Source: Barnesiella propionica | Lineage (GTDB): Bacteria > Bacteroidota > Bacteroidia > Bacteroidales > Barnesiellaceae | Length of the DNA stretch: 64,000 nucleotides | Assembly (NCBI RefSeq): GCF_025567045.1 | Contig: NZ_JAOQJK010000006.1 | Location: 62,001-126,000 of the forward strand | Reading direction: 5' to 3' | Shown here: piece after piece, positions 1,766 to 29,504 of the stretch | Numbering within the stretch: the stretch's first letter is position 1 | How the letters are laid out: each line of letters starts with the position of its first letter | Position numbers and translations under genes: made by a program | Notes under the pieces: generated by a model | What the model was told of the DNA's origin: nothing | Databases searched by the model: none | The model's input: only the letters and a program-made list of their open reading frames with translations

Positions 1766-2809
1766 ATGAAGTTTTCAGCTCAGCAAATTGCCGATTTCCT
1801 GCAGGGAGAAATTATAGGAGATCCGCAGGTTACGGTTGACAATTTGTCAAAGATAGAAGAAGGAACACCCGGAACTCTCAGCTTTCTGGCTAATCCAAAA
1901 TACACACACCATATATATAATACACAGGCCAGCATCGTACTCGTGCGCCGGGATTTCGTTGCAGAGGAAAAAATATCGGCCACTCTCATCAAAGTAGACG
2001 ACCCTTATAGCTGCCTCGCCCTGCTGTTGAACTTGGTAAGCCAGGCCATGCCGCAAAAAAAAGGCAAAGAATCTCCGATATACGTTGCAGCGTCTGCCCA
2101 GATTTCTGAATCTATATATATAGGAGCTTTTGCTTACATCGGCGAAAACACCAGAATAGGGGAAAATGTAAAGATCTATCCGCAGGTATTTATCGGTGAT
2201 GATGTTCTCATAGGAGACAACGTGATTCTCTATCCGGGTGTAAAAATATACCAGGGTTGCCGTATAGGAAATAATTGCATCCTGCATGCAGGTGCTGTAA
2301 TCGGTTCCGATGGTTTCGGTTTTGCCCCTCAAAACGGAGAATATGCAAAAATTCCGCAGATAGGCAATGTCATACTGGAAGAAAACGTAGAAATAGGAGC
2401 TAACACGACTATAGACCGTTCCACTATGGGATCCACAATTATTCGTAAAGGTGTGAAACTGGATAACCTGATACAGGTAGCCCATAATGTAGAAATAGGG
2501 GAACATACCGTTATGGCTGCACAAGCGGGTATTGCGGGTTCTTCTAAAGTCGGCAGCCATTCTATGATAGGCGGACAGGTAGGTATCGCGGGACATATTC
2601 AACTGGGCGACCGTGTAACAATAGGCGCTCAATCGGGAATACCCAATCATCTGCCCGACGGAGTAACTGTCATGGGATATCCGGCTGTACCGGCAAAAGA
2701 TTTTGCACGTACTACCGTATATATTAAACAATTGCCAAAATTGAACGATGAAGTACGCTCACTCAGGAAAGAACTGGAAGAACTAAAGAAATTATTAAAC
2801 AAAGACTGA
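1766..2809 (+). CDS. lpxD: UDP-3-O-(3-hydroxyacyl)glucosamine N-acyltransferase LpxD
   Basis: Third enzyme of lipid A synthesis: transfers a hydroxyacyl chain from acyl carrier protein to the 2-amino group of the UDP-glucosamine intermediate, in the cytosol. The 347-residue protein has the LpxD N-terminal uridine-binding domain (about 1-100), then a left-handed beta helix of hexapeptide repeats ([LIV]-G-x4 type, about 105-310) and a C-terminal helix rich in Lys and Glu. The catalytic histidine lies in QVAHNVEIG near residue 238. First gene of an lpxD-lpxC/fabZ-lpxA operon, with 37 bases to the next start. Confidence 0.96.
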
Positions 2810-2846
2810 ACACAGGGACATCGAGCCCGACAACATAGAATGAGTT

Positions 2847-4232
2847 ATGATCAAACAAAGGACTTTAAAAAATAGTTTTTCTCTTACCGGAAAAGGATTA
2901 CACACCGGACTGGATATTACCGCAACCTTTCTTCCCGCCCCCGAAAACCACGGTTATAAAATACAACGCATCGATCTTGAAGACCAACCCATTATTGAAG
3001 CTCTCGCTGAAAATGTAGTAGAAACACAGCGAGGTACCGTACTGGGAAAAGGAGATGTCGTCGTAAGTACCGTAGAACATGCTTTAGCAGCCCTTTACGG
3101 TGCAGAAATAGATAACTGCCTGATACAGGTGAACGCACCGGAACTTCCCATACTGGACGGTAGTGCCCGCTATTATTCCGAAGCCATCGAAAAAAGCGGA
3201 ATAGAAGAGCAGAACGCGCAAAGAGAATATTTTATTATCAAGTCCAAAATAGAAGTAAAGGACGAAGCTACCGGATCTTCCATTCTGGTACTGCCCGACA
3301 ACGATTTCAGCATCAACACGCTTATCTCTTTCGACTCTCCCGTATTGAACAATCAGTTTGCCAGTCTGGACAGTCTGGCCAATTTTGAAGAAGAAATTGC
3401 AGCCAGCCGTACATTCGTTTTCGTAAGGGAAATAGAACCTTTGGTAAAACATAATCTTATCAAAGGAGGAGACCTCGACAACGCCATCGTTATTTATGAT
3501 AAAAAAATCCCTCAAGAAGAACTGGACCGCCTGGCCGACCTGATGCATGTCCCGCACAAACATGTAGATGAACTGGGATATATCAACAATAAACCATTGG
3601 TTTTCGATAATGAGCCGGCACGTCATAAGTTATTGGATATACTGGGCGATATTGCCCTGGTAGGGAAACCTATTAAAGGACGTATCATCGCAACGCGTCC
3701 CGGACATAAAATCAACAATCAATTCGCCCGTATCATCCGTAAAGACATTAAAAGACAGGAAATACAATGTCCGATTTATAATCCCAATAAAGAACCTATC
3801 ATGGATATAAACCGGGTAAGAGAGTTACTTCCACACCGCTTTCCGTTCCTGATGGTAGATAAAATCATCGAACTGGGAACTAAACATATCGTAGGCGTAA
3901 AAAACATTACCGTTAACGAACCGTTCTTCCAGGGACATTTTCCCGGAGAGCCCGTCACTCCGGGAGTATTGTTGGTAGAAGCAATGGCACAAACAGGAGG
4001 TTTACTGGTGCTAAATACGGTGGAAAATCCCGAAAAATATTCCACTTATTTCATGAAGATCGACAATGTAAAATTCCGCCAGAAAGTAGTACCGGGCGAC
4101 ACTGTAATTTTCCACTTGTCACTTCTCACCGAAATACGACGTGGCTGCGCCTATATGAAAGGATACGCATTTGTAGGAGAAAAGATCGTGACGGAAGCTG
4201 AGTTCATGGCTCAAATCGTAAAAAATAAATAA
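2847..4232 (+). CDS. lpxC/fabZ: Bifunctional LpxC deacetylase / FabZ dehydratase fusion
   Basis: Two enzymes in one 461-residue chain, a fusion typical of Bacteroidota. Residues about 1-305 are LpxC, the zinc deacetylase that commits UDP-3-O-acyl-GlcNAc to lipid A; zinc-ligand motifs are STVEHALAAL near residue 75 and RHKLLDILGD near 260. Residues about 315-461 are FabZ, the 3-hydroxyacyl-ACP dehydratase of fatty acid elongation, with LLPHRFPFLMVD and GHFPGEPVTPGVLLVEAMAQ holding the catalytic His and Glu. Both halves use hydroxyacyl chains, so the fusion ties membrane phospholipid and lipid A supply. The upstream gap is 37 bases and the downstream gap to lpxA 51 bases. Confidence 0.97.
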   Translation: MIKQRTLKNSFSLTGKGLHTGLDITATFLPAPENHGYKIQRIDLEDQPIIEALAENVVETQRGTVLGKGDVVVSTVEHALAALYGAEIDNCLIQVNAPELPILDGSARYYSEAIEKSGIEEQNAQREYFIIKSKIEVKDEATGSSILVLPDNDFSINTLISFDSPVLNNQFASLDSLANFEEEIAASRTFVFVREIEPLVKHNLIKGGDLDNAIVIYDKKIPQEELDRLADLMHVPHKHVDELGYINNKPLVFDNEPARHKLLDILGDIALVGKPIKGRIIATRPGHKINNQFARIIRKDIKRQEIQCPIYNPNKEPIMDINRVRELLPHRFPFLMVDKIIELGTKHIVGVKNITVNEPFFQGHFPGEPVTPGVLLVEAMAQTGGLLVLNTVENPEKYSTYFMKIDNVKFRQKVVPGDTVIFHLSLLTEIRRGCAYMKGYAFVGEKIVTEAEFMAQIVKNK

Positions 4233-4283
4233 CCGGAACTTTCCAGGATGACAGGGAAGTTTATTAACAAGTAAAAGGACAAT

Positions 4284-5060
4284 ATGAAACAACCGTTAGC
4301 ATACGTACATCCCGATGCAAAGATTGCCAATAATGTTGTAATAGAACCATTTGTAACCATCGATAAGAATGTGGTTATAGAAGAAGGTACGCATATAGGT
4401 TCGAATGTAACGATACTGGAAGGAGCCCGGATAGGAAAAAACTGCAATATCTTTCCGGGGGCTGTTATTTCAGGTATACCTCAGGACCTGAAATTTCAGG
4501 GTGAAGAAACGACCGTTGAGATCGGAGATAATACGACCATACGTGAATGTGTCACGGTAAACCGAGGAACCTCAGCAAAAGGGAAAACCGTCATAGGAGA
4601 CAATTGTCTCATCATGGCTTACTCTCATATCGCTCACGATTGTGTCATAGGAAACAATATTATTATTGCAAATGCAAGCCAGATAGCCGGAGAAGTTATC
4701 GTAGATGATTATGCGATTATCGGCGGAGGTTCTCTCATACACCAATTTACCCGTATAGGGGCTCATGTCATGATTCAAGGCGGATCTCTGGTAAATAAAG
4801 ATATTCCTCCTTATGTTAAAGCGGCCCGATCTCCTATCGCTTATGCCGGGATCAATTCGATAGGATTACGCCGAAGGAATTTCTCTAACGAGACAATCCG
4901 GGACATACAGGAGATTTACCGGTATCTCTACTTATCGGGGCTGAATAATACCGATGCTGTTGAACGTATAGAGGCGGAACTGCCGGCTACAAAAGAACGC
5001 GACGAAATCATTCTATTCGTGCGCAACTCTAAGCGAGGTATCATAAAAGGATATATTTAG
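4284..5060 (+). CDS. lpxA: UDP-N-acetylglucosamine O-acyltransferase LpxA
   Basis: First enzyme of lipid A synthesis: moves a 3-hydroxyacyl chain from ACP to the 3-hydroxyl of UDP-GlcNAc. The 258-residue length matches the family. The N-terminal two thirds are hexapeptide repeats of the left-handed beta helix, including the catalytic histidine in SHIAHDCVIGN near residue 116-122 and GGSLIHQFTRIG near 150. The C-terminal part is helical (GLRRRNFSNETIRDIQEIYR). Last gene of the lipid A operon; a perfect 40-base palindrome just downstream ends the transcript. Confidence 0.96.
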   Translation: MKQPLAYVHPDAKIANNVVIEPFVTIDKNVVIEEGTHIGSNVTILEGARIGKNCNIFPGAVISGIPQDLKFQGEETTVEIGDNTTIRECVTVNRGTSAKGKTVIGDNCLIMAYSHIAHDCVIGNNIIIANASQIAGEVIVDDYAIIGGGSLIHQFTRIGAHVMIQGGSLVNKDIPPYVKAARSPIAYAGINSIGLRRRNFSNETIRDIQEIYRYLYLSGLNNTDAVERIEAELPATKERDEIILFVRNSKRGIIKGYI

Positions 5061-5079
5061 AAACAACATTAATCCCAAT

Positions 5080-5119
5080 AATAAGAAACGTCATTCGGTA
5101 CCGAATGACGTTTCTTATT
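5080..5119. terminator. Perfect 40-base palindromic bidirectional terminator
   Basis: The two arms pair over their full length with centre between 5099 and 5100; each arm ends in A/T runs, so it can terminate both lpxA (plus) and the convergent methyltransferase (minus). Confidence 0.8.
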
Positions 5120-5139
5120 TTATTCATTATTTTTCCACT

Positions 5140-5874
5140 TTATTTTTTCACTGCAGAAATCAGGAGCATCATAGGCCGTCTTAATTCATCTTTCATTCCG
5201 GGAACGGATGTAAGAAGTACATCATCCGGTTCCGGCTCTACAAGCCCGGTTACTTCAAATCCGGATTTTATCAGGTCATTCATATATGTGGTAAGCGTCT
5301 TATGATATTTCGTCACTTCTTCTCCCAGAAACACGGCTTTCCTATGCCCTTCAGTAAAATAATTATCTACAGGCCAGTGCAACGAATTTCCTTTTTCATC
5401 ATAATACCAGTCTTGATTACCGTAGGCTGTAAAGACCGGATGTTCTACCGAGAACACGAATGCTCCTCCTTCGCTAAGACATGTATAAACTTTCTCGCAG
5501 ATATTTTTAAAAGATTCGAGATAATGGAATACCAGCAAACTTATCACCACATCGTAGCATGAAGGTTTAAACTCGAAATCTTCTATAGCAACACATTTAT
5601 ACTGTATTAAAGGGGATGAATTCCTTTGTTTCGCACCTTTTATCATCTTCTCCGATATATCGATTCCCATGACTTCAACCGCCCCGTGTTCAACGGCATA
5701 CAGGCAATGCCAACCGAAACCGCAACCTAAATCCAACACTCTTTTGCCTTTGAAAGCAGGAAACATGCTACGTAAAGCATGCCATTCTCCGGCTCCTTTC
5801 AGTCCATTTACAGAACGAGACATCTGACTGTAACGATCAAAAAAAATCTCGTCATCATACTTGTTTTCTTTCAT
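5140..5874 (-). CDS. Class I SAM-dependent methyltransferase
   Basis: A 244-residue soluble Rossmann-fold methyltransferase. Motif I is VLDLGCGFGWHCLYA near residue 45, followed by motif II (VMGIDISEKMIKGAK) and the motif III/IV stretch CYDVVISLLVFHYLE near 107. The second half holds the substrate region (FSVEHPVFTAYG, VEPEPDDVL). This layout resembles UbiE/COQ5-like and Methyltransf_11/25 families that methylate small molecules, but the substrate cannot be named. It is a single gene; a minus-strand TACCTTTGC box at 6114-6122 would give an unusually long leader of about 235 bases, so a closer promoter may exist. Confidence 0.85.
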   Translation of the reverse strand: MKENKYDDEIFFDRYSQMSRSVNGLKGAGEWHALRSMFPAFKGKRVLDLGCGFGWHCLYAVEHGAVEVMGIDISEKMIKGAKQRNSSPLIQYKCVAIEDFEFKPSCYDVVISLLVFHYLESFKNICEKVYTCLSEGGAFVFSVEHPVFTAYGNQDWYYDEKGNSLHWPVDNYFTEGHRKAVFLGEEVTKYHKTLTTYMNDLIKSGFEVTGLVEPEPDDVLLTSVPGMKDELRRPMMLLISAVKK

Positions 5875-6113
5875 ATTTTTATTTACTATAAAATCATTTT
5901 CGGTTCCGCCGAACCGCCTAATTACTATGGAAAACGTCTCAACCGGTTAATAAGTCAATAAGCGGAAAATCTTTACATGAAACAAAAATTACCGCAGTCT
6001 CATAAACAATTACCGGATTTACAATATCACCGATTAAAGGATAAAATATTTCCGTAGAATTTGTAATACATCATATATAAATATATAATGACTTCTTACT
6101 GGTAATCGTTCGA

Positions 6114-6122
6114 GCAAAGGTA
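6114..6122 (-). promoter_or_regulatory. Minus-strand -7 box TACCTTTGC
   Basis: Exact match to TAnnTTTGC on the minus strand, 240 bases upstream of the methyltransferase start. No convincing -33 element seen. Confidence 0.4.
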
Positions 6123-6202
6123 TAGATTGTTCTTTCGATTAAATGTTTTCCCTAAAAAAATTTAACCGGAAAAAGAATAATCCTAATTATATTGTTTACC
6201 CC

Positions 6203-6239
6203 ATTGAGAAAAGAAAAAATAAGGCTTTCTTTTCTCAAT
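6203..6239 (+). repeat. 14-bp inverted repeat in the leader of the PRiA4b-like gene
   Basis: Arms at 6203-6216 and 6226-6239 pair perfectly around a nine-base loop, 67 bases before the start codon at 6306. No T-run follows on the plus strand, so it is a leader hairpin rather than a clear terminator. The rest of 5875-6305 is AT-rich with no coding signal. Confidence 0.5.
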
Positions 6240-6305
6240 AGTGATATTTTTATTATTTTTACGCAACAAATATACAGGGAACAATCATATCAAAAAAGTA
6301 ATATT

Positions 6306-6866
6306 ATGATATATAAATTTTTGCTCGTATCGGACGAAGTTGATGACTTCAAAAGAGAAATCAGTATTGATTCGGACGCAACTTTTCTAGACCTGAACGA
6401 CGCCATTCTGGAATCGGTTAATTTTACCAAAGACCAGATGACTTCTTTTTTCATCTGTGACGAAGACTGGGAAAAGAAAACGGAGATTACTCTCATGGAA
6501 ATGGATACTTCATCGGAAGAGGATACCTGGACAATGGCCGAAACTACCTTAAGTGAACTAATAGAAGACGAAGGCCAGCGTTTAATATATATATTTGATT
6601 ACATCACAGAACGTATGTTTTTCATGGAACTGAAAGAAGCTATCCCCGGAAAGAACCTTACGGCTCCTGTATGTACCAAGAAAGGGGGTAATCCTCCTAA
6701 ACAAATAATGGATTTCGAAGAATTCGATAAAAAGGCTCAAACCTCTTCCGCAGATCTGGACGCAGATTTCTACGGTGACGAAACATTCGATCCGTCCGAA
6801 CTGGATGGCGAAGGCTTCAATGATCTGGATATGAGTGAAGGAGGAGGCTACGACGACAGATACTGA
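6306..6866 (+). CDS. PRiA4b ORF-3-like protein (IS1096 TnpR-passenger family)
   Basis: A 186-residue acidic protein starting MIYKFLLVSDEVDDFKREI, which fits the PRiA4_ORF3 fold (an alpha-beta domain also described as IS1096 element passenger TnpR-like). The domain covers about residues 1-150; the tail is a low-complexity stretch of Asp, Glu, Gly and Ser (ELDGEGFNDLDMSEGG). An upstream in-frame ATG at 6192 would add 38 residues rich in Phe and Ile that do not fit the family, so 6306 is chosen. Despite the family name there is no transposase nearby. Function unknown; Bacteroidales carry it widely as a stand-alone gene. Confidence 0.75.
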   Translation: MIYKFLLVSDEVDDFKREISIDSDATFLDLNDAILESVNFTKDQMTSFFICDEDWEKKTEITLMEMDTSSEEDTWTMAETTLSELIEDEGQRLIYIFDYITERMFFMELKEAIPGKNLTAPVCTKKGGNPPKQIMDFEEFDKKAQTSSADLDADFYGDETFDPSELDGEGFNDLDMSEGGGYDDRY

Positions 6867-6885
6867 TCTTTTATATCGTATACTG

Positions 6886-6918
6886 AAAAGCTCCGGAAAA
6901 TTCATCCGGAGCTTTTTT
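6886..6918 (+). terminator. Rho-independent terminator
   Basis: Twelve-base arms (6886-6897 and 6905-6916) with a seven-base loop and a T-run, 20 bases beyond the stop codon of the PRiA4b-like gene; also usable on the other strand for the convergent yigZ-type gene. Confidence 0.85.
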
Positions 6919-6952
6919 TATATTTGTCAACCAACAGAACTAAAACAAGCAT

Positions 6953-7567
6953 TTAATTCTCCTCCCATTCTTTGCCCTTGATAACAAGTCCATCTATCTT
7001 TTCCAGCCTGCTGCGAAGTCTATCCATCTCACTCTGTCTGATACGCAATGTCATATTACAGTCCATATCGAAAGATTGCGATATTATCTGAGCGTGATCT
7101 TCTTTCACAATACGCATTACATCATTCATGAAAGGATATTCGAACCGAAAGCTCACTTCTGCTTCCACCAGACATTCGATAATCTCACCTGCTTTAATAG
7201 CTTCTGCCGCCGCTTCCCTGTATGCAACAATCAGCCCACTGGTACCTAACTTAATGCCCCCGAAATAACGAATAACGACAATAAGGACATTCGTGAGACC
7301 AAAAGAATTAATTTGTCCCAATATAGGCTTTCCTGCCGTACCGGAAGGTTCTCCGTTATCATTGGAACGGAAACAACTCCGGTCAGACCCTATCATATAA
7401 GCCCAACAAACATGACGGGCGTCATAATATTCTTTCTGGTATTTCTCAATATATTCCATAGCTTCTTTCACCGTCGAAACAGGTATCGCGAAAGAAAGAA
7501 ATTTACTCATCTTCTCTTTATAAAGACCTTCGGATATATCGGATAGGGTAAGATATGCATCGTCCAT
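6953..7567 (-). CDS. YigZ / IMPACT (UPF0029) family protein
   Basis: A 204-residue YigZ-family protein. The N-terminal UPF0029 domain (about 20-125) carries the signature HVCWAYMIG and NDNGEPSGTAGKPILGQI, followed by VVIRYFGGIKLGTSGLIVAY. The C-terminal ferredoxin-like domain (DUF1949 type, about 135-195) ends the chain. Homologues are related to the eukaryotic translational regulator IMPACT; the bacterial role is not settled. The start codon at 7567 follows directly after the T-run of the cytochrome bd terminator, and a -7 box TATTTTTG (7595-7602) lies inside that terminator's loop, so the leader is only about 20 bases. Confidence 0.9.
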   Translation of the reverse strand: MDDAYLTLSDISEGLYKEKMSKFLSFAIPVSTVKEAMEYIEKYQKEYYDARHVCWAYMIGSDRSCFRSNDNGEPSGTAGKPILGQINSFGLTNVLIVVIRYFGGIKLGTSGLIVAYREAAAEAIKAGEIIECLVEAEVSFRFEYPFMNDVMRIVKEDHAQIISQSFDMDCNMTLRIRQSEMDRLRSRLEKIDGLVIKGKEWEEN

Positions 7568-7615
7568 AAAAAAGGCTTACTCTTGTATTATTTACAAAAA
7601 TAAGCCCTTTTTTTT
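7568..7615 (-). terminator. Stem-loop beyond cydB with the yigZ promoter in its loop
   Basis: Arms around 7568-7579 and 7601-7613 pair (one bulged base), ending in a T-run on the minus strand. It lies 26 bases past the cydB stop codon. The loop holds TATTTTTG at 7595-7602, a -7 box for the next minus-strand gene. Confidence 0.55.
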
Positions 7616-7641
7616 AAAGAAGCAACTATATGTTTTTCATA

Positions 7642-8799
7642 TCAATACTTATGGTCGGAACCTTCCATTTCCGCCGGAGTTATGGACTTTGCATCCATTG
7701 CCCTCCACACATAGAATATATAAGCTAAAACAAAAGGAACCAAAAGCGATACGACGCTCATCGTCTGTAAAGTAAAGAAAGTGGAAGAGCTGTTATAAAT
7801 AGTCAGGGAGCTTTGTATATCGGATGCAGACGGATAATATGGTGTATTATTATATCCGGCCAGAAAAAACACGCTTAATACCACCAAAACCGTACCTGTT
7901 CCCGAAAACCATATCCCTTTGGTAAATTTATGGGCCAGTACCGAACGTATGAGCGCATACAATACAAGTACAACGCCTGTTACAAAAAGGACCGCTACCC
8001 AAGGCATCTCTATAAGATTGAAAAAATACTTGTACTTCCTCAGAAATATTTCTCCGTTAGCAGGATTCAGTTCATAACCTGTCGCTGTAAGCGTAACGCC
8101 GACAAAAGCAAGGAAGCAAACTACAAATATAATTCCGTTATACAAGACCTCTTTCCGGGCTTTGGCATATATACTCTCATCATCTATATTATTCATAAAA
8201 TACAAGGCTCCTTGTACGCGCGCGAGAAACAATATAGTAACTCCCAGTAAGATATTACGCCAGTTAGCAATAGCTTCGAGACCGTGCCAGGGATTTTCCC
8301 AAGTAGAAATAACGGGCATTGCCGGATCCAATATGTTTGTCTTATTCACATTAAAATCGGACCCGGTAAAAAAAGTCCCTACTGCCACGCCCAATAAAAA
8401 AGAACCAACCAGCCCATTAATAAACAGAAATGTATCGTAGGTTTTAGTTCCTAAAAAATTCCCTTTTTTCGACCGGTATTCATAAGACACGGCCTGGATA
8501 ATAAAGCTAAAAAGAATTGCCATCCATAACCAATATGCACCGCCGAAACTGGTAGAATAGAATAACGGGAACGAAGCGAAAAACGCACCGCCGAAAACCA
8601 CAAGGGTAGTAAATGTAAATTCCCATTTGCGTCCCAACGAATTGACAAGCATCGTCTTTTCCAGCGGAGTCTTTGCCATTCCGGCCAACATAGTCTGTCC
8701 TCCCTGAACAAAAAGCAGGAATACCAATAAAGCGCCCAAAAGGGAAATCAGAAACCACCAGTAATTCTGGTAAAATAATTCATTCAGTTCCATAATCAT
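7642..8799 (-). CDS. cydB: Cytochrome bd ubiquinol oxidase subunit II
   Basis: Integral membrane subunit of the bd-type quinol oxidase, which reduces oxygen to water at very low oxygen tension. The 385-residue protein has about nine membrane segments, starting YWWFLISLLGALLVFLLFVQGG, and the family stretch FASFPLFYSTSFGGAYWL. It binds no haem itself and stabilises CydA. The start directly abuts the cydA stop codon (8800), so the two are translationally coupled. In an obligate anaerobe of this group the enzyme serves oxygen scavenging and nanaerobic respiration. Confidence 0.96.
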   Translation of the reverse strand: MIMELNELFYQNYWWFLISLLGALLVFLLFVQGGQTMLAGMAKTPLEKTMLVNSLGRKWEFTFTTLVVFGGAFFASFPLFYSTSFGGAYWLWMAILFSFIIQAVSYEYRSKKGNFLGTKTYDTFLFINGLVGSFLLGVAVGTFFTGSDFNVNKTNILDPAMPVISTWENPWHGLEAIANWRNILLGVTILFLARVQGALYFMNNIDDESIYAKARKEVLYNGIIFVVCFLAFVGVTLTATGYELNPANGEIFLRKYKYFFNLIEMPWVAVLFVTGVVLVLYALIRSVLAHKFTKGIWFSGTGTVLVVLSVFFLAGYNNTPYYPSASDIQSSLTIYNSSSTFFTLQTMSVVSLLVPFVLAYIFYVWRAMDAKSITPAEMEGSDHKY

Positions 8800-28507: not shown

Positions 28508-28594
28508 ATACGACAATATAAAGGGTTCCCGGGAAATTCGGACGATTATCTATATTCGACTAATTTTTTTCAGTTTTTTATAAATCCGTTATAC
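28508..28594. repeat. Left copy of an imperfect direct repeat matching the maf 3' end
   Basis: Two blocks match the region at 29422-29504: 28508-28519 (12 of 12 bases) and 28559-28594 (nearly identical over 36, with 19 of 20 across 28571-28590). The second block repeats the last codons of maf without any maf gene attached. The two copies flank the SGNH gene. Confidence 0.65.
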
Positions 28595-28629: not shown

Positions 28630-29365
28630 CTATCGTGTCTTTTGTTCATATACATATTCTGTAATAGCATCACGCCAAATCTGATATGATTCTTTTTTTA
28701 AATGTATTCCATCAAATGTATATTTCATCGGCAGATTTTCATTCTCCTCATATAGCGAAAATAAATCTATATATATAAGATTCCTCTGTTTTGCTATATC
28801 TCTAATTATTTTATTTGCCATCTGCACCTTTTCAAAATCAGCACATAAATCATACACTGATTTATTAACAGGTAAAATACTTTGAACATAAAGTTTTAAA
28901 TCACCTATAGATAAAATACTGTCAACTAATTCAGTATAAGAAGATCTGAAATCTGATAAGCTGCTATCTTTTAAGCCATTTATACCGGCCATTAAAAAAA
29001 CCTTTTTAGGTTTCGCAAATCGTATCATGTCCATACGCCCAAGCATACCGTTTGGAGTATCCTCGCAAAAACCTAAATTACATACAGACAAATCACTAAA
29101 TAATTCGTCAAAATCGCCAAAATAGGTCATACTATCACCAAAAAAAGCAACATCAGTTCTTAAATGCAATTGTTTAATCGTATTCGTCCAACACTTTACG
29201 GCCCAAACCTGATTAACTTTTGTTTTTTCAACCCACCCGAACTTTTCAGCATAACGCCTGAAATAATTTGTCCTTATACCAATATAACAAACCGCAAAGG
29301 TTTCAAAAAGAATAAAAATAATAAGGAGTATTCTACCCCCCCCCCCGTTTAATATTTGTTAACAT
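28630..29365 (-). CDS. SGNH hydrolase with membrane anchor, frame broken at a G tract (probable phase-variable gene)
   Basis: The intact part (28630-29169, reading from a TTG) encodes an SGNH/GDSL-type hydrolase: block I FFGDSMTYFGDF, block III MAGINGLKD and block V DGIHL with the catalytic His. The same frame runs upstream with no stop or start codon to an 11-base G tract (29336-29346 on the plus strand as Cs). A consensus promoter and ATG (29365) lie just beyond it but one base out of frame. With 10 or 13 Gs the product would be 244 or 245 residues: MLTNIKR, glycines, one membrane helix (RILLIIFILFETFAVCY), a linker (RRYAEKFGWVEK), then the hydrolase. Low GC compared with neighbours suggests transfer. 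Likely substrate is an acylated surface polysaccharide, by inference. Confidence 0.7.
29336..29346 (-). repeat. Eleven-base homopolymeric G tract in the SGNH coding start
   Basis: Eleven Cs on the plus strand, seven codons after the ATG at 29365. The tract length sets the frame: 11 leads to a stop codon directly after the tract, 12 leads to a stop 20 codons later, 10 or 13 joins the start to the hydrolase. Confidence 0.8.
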
Positions 29366-29385: not shown

Positions 29386-29393
29386 CAAATATA
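29386..29393 (-). promoter_or_regulatory. -7 box of the SGNH gene
   Basis: TATATTTG on the minus strand, 21 bases before the ATG at 29365. The -33 region is weak. Confidence 0.6.
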
Positions 29394-29421: not shown

Positions 29422-29504
29422 ATACGACAATATGAATGGGTTTCAAACAATTCTATATATTTCTTATACTAAAATTTTTTCAGTTCTTTATAAATCCGTT
29501 GTAC
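29422..29504. repeat. Right copy of the direct repeat (maf 3' end and downstream bases)
   Basis: Holds the last 12 codons of maf and about 47 bases beyond; partner of the copy at 28508-28594. Confidence 0.65.

What the first reader, a model, noticed from the sequence alone, without database searches (positions are those of the whole stretch)
28630..29365. Probable phase-variable membrane-anchored SGNH hydrolase switched by an 11-base G tract
The hydrolase frame extends upstream with no stop and no ATG, GTG or TTG codon until a tract of 11 Gs. Beyond the tract, a consensus -7 box (29386-29393) and an ATG (29365) lie 21 bases apart, but the ATG is one base out of frame. With 10 or 13 Gs the start joins a membrane helix, a linker and the intact SGNH domain; with 11 translation stops directly after the tract. 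This is the classic design of slipped-strand switching, placed inside the coding start of a surface enzyme that could remove acyl groups from polysaccharide.
Basis: partly seen in the sequence, partly recalled or inferred. Interest (0 to 1): 0.75.

Follow-up and report, generated by a model that had tools for sequence, protein, structure and literature searches.

The report
Poly-G switch on a membrane esterase
A gut-type bacterium carries a gene for a membrane-anchored enzyme of a family that cuts acetyl groups off sugars; a run of 11 Gs near its start puts it out of frame, and relatives in which the same gene is in frame suggest that the run is a genetic on/off switch.

Summary
ATG 29365, G11 (29346-29336) and a TAG directly after it lie on the minus strand; the SGNH frame (28630-29334) is open through the tract, with no ATG/GTG/TTG until a TTG 166 nt on. 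Slipped-strand phase variation is the best reading. Four other divergent homologues have G7, G8, G8 or G9 at the same place. Sixteen of 120 listed homologous proteins have GG/GGG directly before the membrane helix (by eye). Two near-identical relatives are in frame: P0001 against the window (2 differences in 234 residues) and P0120 against L020 (1 in 235). The fold matches Phocaeicola vulgatus sialate O-acetylesterase. In three relatives the gene, once broken, lies in a polysaccharide locus upstream of a hexapeptide acyltransferase gene. Of 56 G(9+)TARAA tracts in 295 Bacteroidales genomes, 13 lead into an open frame of 100 aa or more; 5 of the 13 belong to acyltransferase families typical of surface sugars, against at least 3 of 129 neighbouring frames. 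Switching, substrate and location were not shown. The window copy looks horizontally acquired.

The parts
29386..29393 (-). Possible -7 box TATATTTG
   Evidence: Sequence; 80 TAnnTTTG sites on both strands of the window, so weak
29363..29365 (-). Probable start codon ATG; the near-identical protein P0001 begins MLTNIK, as the window does here
29336..29346 (-). G11 tract; the present length leaves the ATG one base out of frame with the SGNH domain
29333..29335 (-). TAG stop read directly after the tract in the present (OFF) frame
28630..29334 (-). Post-tract open frame of the SGNH protein (234 codons plus stop)
29272..29331 (-). Predicted N-terminal helix, read as a membrane helix (residues 2-21 of the post-tract frame)
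   Evidence: AlphaFold model, mean pLDDT 93.5; hydrophobic by eye
28678..29145 (-). SGNH/GDSL hydrolase domain (Pfam PF13472, residues 64-219); S68, G88, N119, D208, H211 present
29167..29169 (-). Only alternative start (TTG) before the catalytic motif; would remove helix and linker
29422..29504 (-). 3' end of maf and the stretch after it, copy 1 of an imperfect direct repeat
28508..28594 (-). Copy 2 of that repeat, downstream of the SGNH gene
   Evidence: 79 of 112 alignment columns identical, which runs a little further; 91% over 33 nt

Best explanation
The gene encodes a membrane-anchored SGNH carbohydrate O-acetylesterase, probably in the inner membrane with the enzyme in the periplasm. 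The ATG, a short leader with Gly codons, one membrane helix and the SGNH domain form one frame only at certain lengths of a poly-G tract. Slippage during replication adds or removes Gs and so switches the protein on and off; the copy in this window is OFF and stops directly after the tract. The enzyme most likely removes acetyl groups from the cell's own capsule or O-antigen sugars, so that the switch varies surface acetylation. Shown: tract, frames, shared tract position, near-identical in-frame relatives, fold, polysaccharide-locus company in three relatives. Inferred: slippage as the cause, location, substrate.
For: Tract at the same place in five loci with an open post-tract SGNH frame (window, L001, L003, L020, L024), all out of frame from the ATG; three stop at once, two within 14-20 nt. 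Near-identical in-frame relatives: P0001 vs window 2 of 234, P0120 vs L020 1 of 235 differences after the tract. GG/GGG directly before the helix in 16 of 120 listed homologues (by eye). Proteins annotated from a late start are 14 of 33 in the clades that hold these, against 7 of 85 elsewhere (Fisher p 5e-5; clades chosen after seeing the tree); 8 of the 14 and 1 of the 7 have a contig over 10 kb, so they are not all contig-end fragments. GGG is 11% of Gly codons in the window's long frames, so pure-G stretches in several divergent copies are not expected from Gly-Gly alone. Fold: 7pzg, E 2.3e-14. Context: flippase upstream and hexapeptide acyltransferase directly downstream in L135, L136, L138.
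Against: No reads were available, so a mixed population was not seen. All five of those tracts are OFF, which random frames would give about 1 time in 8 and which decay would also give. A sixth copy (L135) has only G6 at the place, is in frame into the helix and is broken further on, so copies do decay. Most genome relatives have no tract: 29 of 34 loci checked had no run of 6 or more near the start. P0001 differs from the window in the leader too (no Arg codon), so it is not simply a length variant. Assembly error in a homopolymer cannot be excluded for any one record. The window copy is not in a polysaccharide locus as far as its scanned neighbours show. The closest solved relative acts on sialic acid, so a host-glycan substrate remains possible.
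Confidence: 0.78

Rival explanations
1. The window copy is a decaying, horizontally acquired gene; the tract is an incidental frameshift in a pseudogene.
For: GC 0.30-0.34 against 0.39-0.49 in the windows on either side; flanked by a duplicated maf 3' end; five of five tract alleles with an open SGNH frame are OFF; a clearly broken copy exists in L135.
Against: 234 codons intact with the catalytic residues; near-identical in-frame relative; same tract position in divergent homologues.
Confidence: 0.12
2. The tract length is a sequencing or assembly error and the gene is constantly in frame.
For: Long homopolymers are error-prone; no reads were available.
Against: Separate assemblies of different organisms show tracts of differing length at the same place.
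Confidence: 0.05
3. Programmed slippage of RNA polymerase or ribosome on the G tract yields the full protein from the off-frame gene.
For: All five tract alleles are out of frame from the ATG.
Against: The required shift is not constant: offset 1 in window, L001 and L020, offset 2 in L003 and L024; in-frame relatives exist.
Confidence: 0.05
4. The SGNH protein works as an O-acetyltransferase partner, as PatB or the SGNH part of AT3-SGNH fusions does, rather than as an esterase; the switch is the same.
For: The SGNH domain is needed for transfer in AT3-SGNH proteins (PMC9558356, passages); an Acyl_transf_3 protein and hexapeptide proteins lie in the L135 locus.
Against: Closest in sequence and fold among solved structures is an esterase, PvSAE; no acyltransferase family among the three neighbouring window genes scanned.
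Confidence: 0.25

Closest known systems
Phocaeicola vulgatus sialic acid acetylesterase PvSAE (PDB 7pzg, 7pzh; also 6njc)
   Same: SGNH fold and the Ser, Gly, Asn, His, Asp residues; about 30% identity over some 190 columns
   Different: PvSAE has a predicted cleaved signal peptide (PMC9063846, passages); the window protein has a helix that looks uncleaved and a poly-G leader
Poly-G phase-variable surface-glycan genes of Campylobacter jejuni (cgtB, 8 or 9 Gs)
   Same: G tract within the coding sequence, length change truncates the product, surface-sugar gene (PMC6437147, passages)
   Different: Bacteroidales-type gene for an esterase-like enzyme; switching not measured here
Phase-variable K1 capsule O-acetylation of E. 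coli (gene name NeuO recalled)
   Same: Slippage changes capsule acetylation (PMC3090145, passage)
   Different: Heteropolymeric repeat and an acetyltransferase there
Inversion-based phase variation of Bacteroides
   Same: Switches surface polysaccharide genes in the same order of bacteria (PMC11868660, passages)
   Different: Site-specific inversion, not repeat slippage
Repeat-mediated phase variation of a sialidase (NanH3) in Gardnerella
   Same: A sialic-acid-related hydrolase switched by slipped-strand mispairing (PMC11868660, one passage and its reference list)
   Different: Different enzyme and phylum

Membership tests
Homopolymer contingency locus (slipped-strand phase variation) | Long pure repeat in the coding start or promoter | tested here: met
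   G11 between ATG and domain
Homopolymer contingency locus (slipped-strand phase variation) | Length decides between full frame and early stop | tested here: met
   Frame analysis
Homopolymer contingency locus (slipped-strand phase variation) | Length varies among close relatives | tested here: inconclusive
   In-frame near-identical proteins P0001 and P0120, but their DNA could not be read and P0001 also differs in the leader
Homopolymer contingency locus (slipped-strand phase variation) | High-rate reversible switching in one population | not testable with these tools
   No reads or strains
SGNH/GDSL hydrolase | Conserved blocks with Ser, Gly, Asn and Asp/His | tested here: met
   S68, G88, N119, D208, H211; PF13472 E 3.4e-14
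Sialate O-acetylesterase (PvSAE type) | Sequence and fold match | tested here: met
   phmmer E 3.9e-23, Foldseek E 2.3e-14
Sialate O-acetylesterase (PvSAE type) | Acts on O-acetylated sialic acid | not testable with these tools
   Needs an enzyme assay
Acetylxylan esterase AxeA1 (NF042968) | Curated score cut-off of the family model | tested here: not met
   22.1 bits against a cut-off of 700

The most novel reading that the evidence does not exclude
Bacteroidales possess, beside their invertible DNA switches, a second phase-variation system built on poly-G tracts, often followed by TARAA, that preferentially switches enzymes adding or removing acyl groups on surface polysaccharides; the window gene is a member that has moved out of the polysaccharide locus.
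Probability: 0.5. Interest if true: 0.72.

Novelty: new member of a known kind. Interest (0 to 1): 0.6.

Why it matters
Phase variation in gut Bacteroidales is mostly described as DNA inversion. A repeat-slippage switch on capsule acetylation would be missed by inversion-finding methods and is easily lost in annotation as a truncated gene, yet acetyl groups can decide how antibodies and phages see the cell (general knowledge). The survey gives a short list of loci on which the idea can be tested.

Tried and rejected
Own-genome search: none is held. A single-protein scan of genome contigs confirmed no relative; the alignment scan did. The window species was not identified: DNA of maf and its neighbours gave 63-68% identity over the long matches. 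Viral contigs, phages and plasmids gave only distant relatives, so no mobile carrier was found. Flanking direct repeats like those of the window were looked for in four other loci (L001, L003, L020, L024) and not found, apart from one 12-nt match in L001 with E 0.087. An automatic GG label on the tree was too loose, since it also caught GG inside or after the helix, and 15 of 120 proteins were left out of that tree because its motif was not found; the count of 16 is by eye. P0066, one of the 16, was left out of the tree and so counted among the 85. Programmed frameshifting was rejected because the needed shift differs among loci. The G(9+)TARAA motif alone does not mark a switch: 43 of 56 are not followed by an open frame of 100 aa within the fetched stretch, some of which end early at a contig end. 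Literature: no report of poly-G switching of such genes in Bacteroidales showed in the listings (most listed papers were not opened); the nearest passage is a B. fragilis acetyltransferase-related frameshift in a run of four Cs (PMC3090145). Most subscription journals are not in that library.

Full report
On the minus strand the ATG at 29365 is followed by a short leader and a G11 run (29346-29336), then TAG; the SGNH frame is open from before the tract to the stop at 28630. No ATG, GTG or TTG occurs in that frame after the tract until a TTG 166 nt on. It is the only G or C run of 8 or more in the window; 0.014 runs of 11 or more are expected under a first-order model. The -7 box is there, but such boxes are common in the window (80 on both strands), so it adds little.

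The protein belongs to the SGNH enzymes. Pfam PF13472 matches residues 64-219 of the post-tract frame. S68, G88, N119, D208 and H211 are invariant in an alignment of 54 sequences, the window included. The AlphaFold model (mean pLDDT 93.5) matches Phocaeicola vulgatus sialate O-acetylesterase best among solved structures (7pzg, E 2.3e-14, 30% identity; phmmer E 3.9e-23). That enzyme has a Ser-His-Asp triad, Gly and Asn in the oxyanion hole, and a GNS in block I (PMC9063846, passages). The model begins with a helix at residues 2-21, which I read as a single uncleaved membrane helix.

The tract recurs at the same place. Of the 80 best genome loci of 413 relatives I checked 34 for G runs of 6 or more near the match start. 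Four have one of 7-9 Gs directly before the membrane helix (L001 G8, L003 G8, L020 G9, L024 G7); L030 has a G6 elsewhere; the other 29 have none. With the window that makes five, all out of frame from the ATG: three meet a stop at the first codon after the tract, two within 14-20 nt. A sixth copy, in L135, has G6 there, is in frame into the helix and is broken further on. Among the 120 homologous proteins listed, of 148 found, 16 carry GG or GGG directly before the helix (P0001, 4, 5, 6, 10, 15, 16, 17, 19, 40, 51, 66, 69, 70, 76, 120; by eye). For these proteins only residues are known, not that the codons form a G run.

Near-identical relatives are in frame. P0001 begins MLTNIKGGGR and differs from the window at 2 of 234 residues after the tract; P0120 has NICGGGKIL and differs at 1 of 235 from L020, whose DNA (G9) is out of frame. 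P0021, 99.5% identical to the G8 locus L003 over 212 residues, is annotated from a start past the helix, as expected for an OFF allele. P0001 lacks the Arg codon of the window's leader, so it differs by more than tract length. Proteins with a late start are concentrated in the clades that hold GG leaders: 14 of 33 against 7 of 85 (p 5e-5; two of 120 had no motif and were dropped; the clades were chosen after seeing the tree). Eight of the 14 and one of the 7 have a contig over 10 kb.

Context. In G002 (L138), G001 (L136) and G716 (L135) the gene, or in L135 its broken copy, lies downstream of a Polysacc_synt flippase gene (next to it in L135 and L138; one gene between in L136) and directly upstream of a hexapeptide acyltransferase gene; a Wzy_C match is near in L138 and, below the curated cut-off, in L135. 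In G003 (L137) it stands alone between a Queuosine_synth and an HPPK gene. In the window it stands alone after maf, in a stretch of 0.30-0.34 GC against 0.39-0.49 on either side, with an imperfect copy of the maf 3' end on its far side. This points to horizontal acquisition. The family is rare at strict cut-offs: 4 of 393, 4 of 301 and 4 of 301 genomes in three overlapping draws. These make 8 distinct genomes, of which 2 (G001, G003) have a tract of 7 or more Gs at the start of this gene.

Wider pattern. G(9)TARAA occurs at 56 places in 36 of 295 Bacteroidales genomes; the pattern read backwards occurs at 16 places in 12 genomes (the control total was read off its table and summed). Thirteen of the 56 are followed by an open frame of 100 aa or more. 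Twelve of these were scanned against Pfam (two, ten); L213, which resembles SSB by eye, was not. Five of the 13 match acyltransferase families typical of surface sugars: hexapeptide (two in L135, one in L206), Acyl_transf_3 (L224) and AlgX (L240), from four genomes. As background I took 129 other stop-to-stop frames of 130 aa or more from L201-L253: 3 matched Hexapep, while Acyl_transf_3 and AlgX were not among the 25 of 192 families shown, so a few single hits could be hidden. Fisher p is 1.4e-4 with 3 background hits and 2.5e-3 if 8 are allowed. Two of the three background hits lie beside tract genes. The grouping was made after seeing the hits. From nearby ATGs the tract genes are out of frame in L135 (both) and L224; an in-frame ATG exists in L206 and L240. 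The Acyl_transf_3 gene in L135 also has a G10, without TARAA.

Mechanism. Slipped-strand switching explains the varied lengths, the immediate stops, the in-frame relatives and the late-start annotations. A programmed frameshift would need a constant shift, but the offset is 1 in three loci and 2 in two. A plain pseudogene does not explain the shared tract position. Which glycan is deacetylated is not known: the acyltransferase neighbours favour the cell's own polysaccharide, the closest solved relative favours sialic acid.

Compared with what is known, this is a homopolymer contingency locus of the type described for Campylobacter surface-glycan genes (PMC6437147, passages), in an order where the phase variation named in the review passages I saw rests on inversion (PMC11868660). 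I file it as a new member of a known kind, with a possible wider poly-G system in Bacteroidales as the bolder reading.

Noticed in passing
L135 (G716:C4:157000-169000), 2505-8452: A polysaccharide locus with three G tracts (G10 in an acyltransferase-3 gene, G12 and G9 at the start of two hexapeptide acyltransferase genes) and a broken SGNH copy.
   Followed up: partly
L135 and L201-L253: TTAAC occurs within 45 nt upstream of 16 of 54 G(9+)TARAA tracts against 4.3% of random 45-mers from the same loci; many of these tracts look intergenic, so a separate AT-rich plus poly-G element may exist.
   Followed up: no
L139, 2330-2337 (minus): A G8TAAAAT tract in G001 lies inside a frame that by eye resembles a type I restriction specificity subunit; not scanned.
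   Followed up: no
window 28508-28594 and 29422-29504: The 3' end of maf is repeated on the far side of the SGNH gene, a hint to how the segment was inserted.
   Followed up: partly
P0045 against P0076: Two 87.5% identical proteins, one with GG before the helix and one with MW there, as if the tract had been lost in one lineage.
   Followed up: no
L240, 222-1493 (minus): An AlgX-type SGNH acetyltransferase gene with a G9 tract and an in-frame ATG 16 nt upstream of it.
   Followed up: partly
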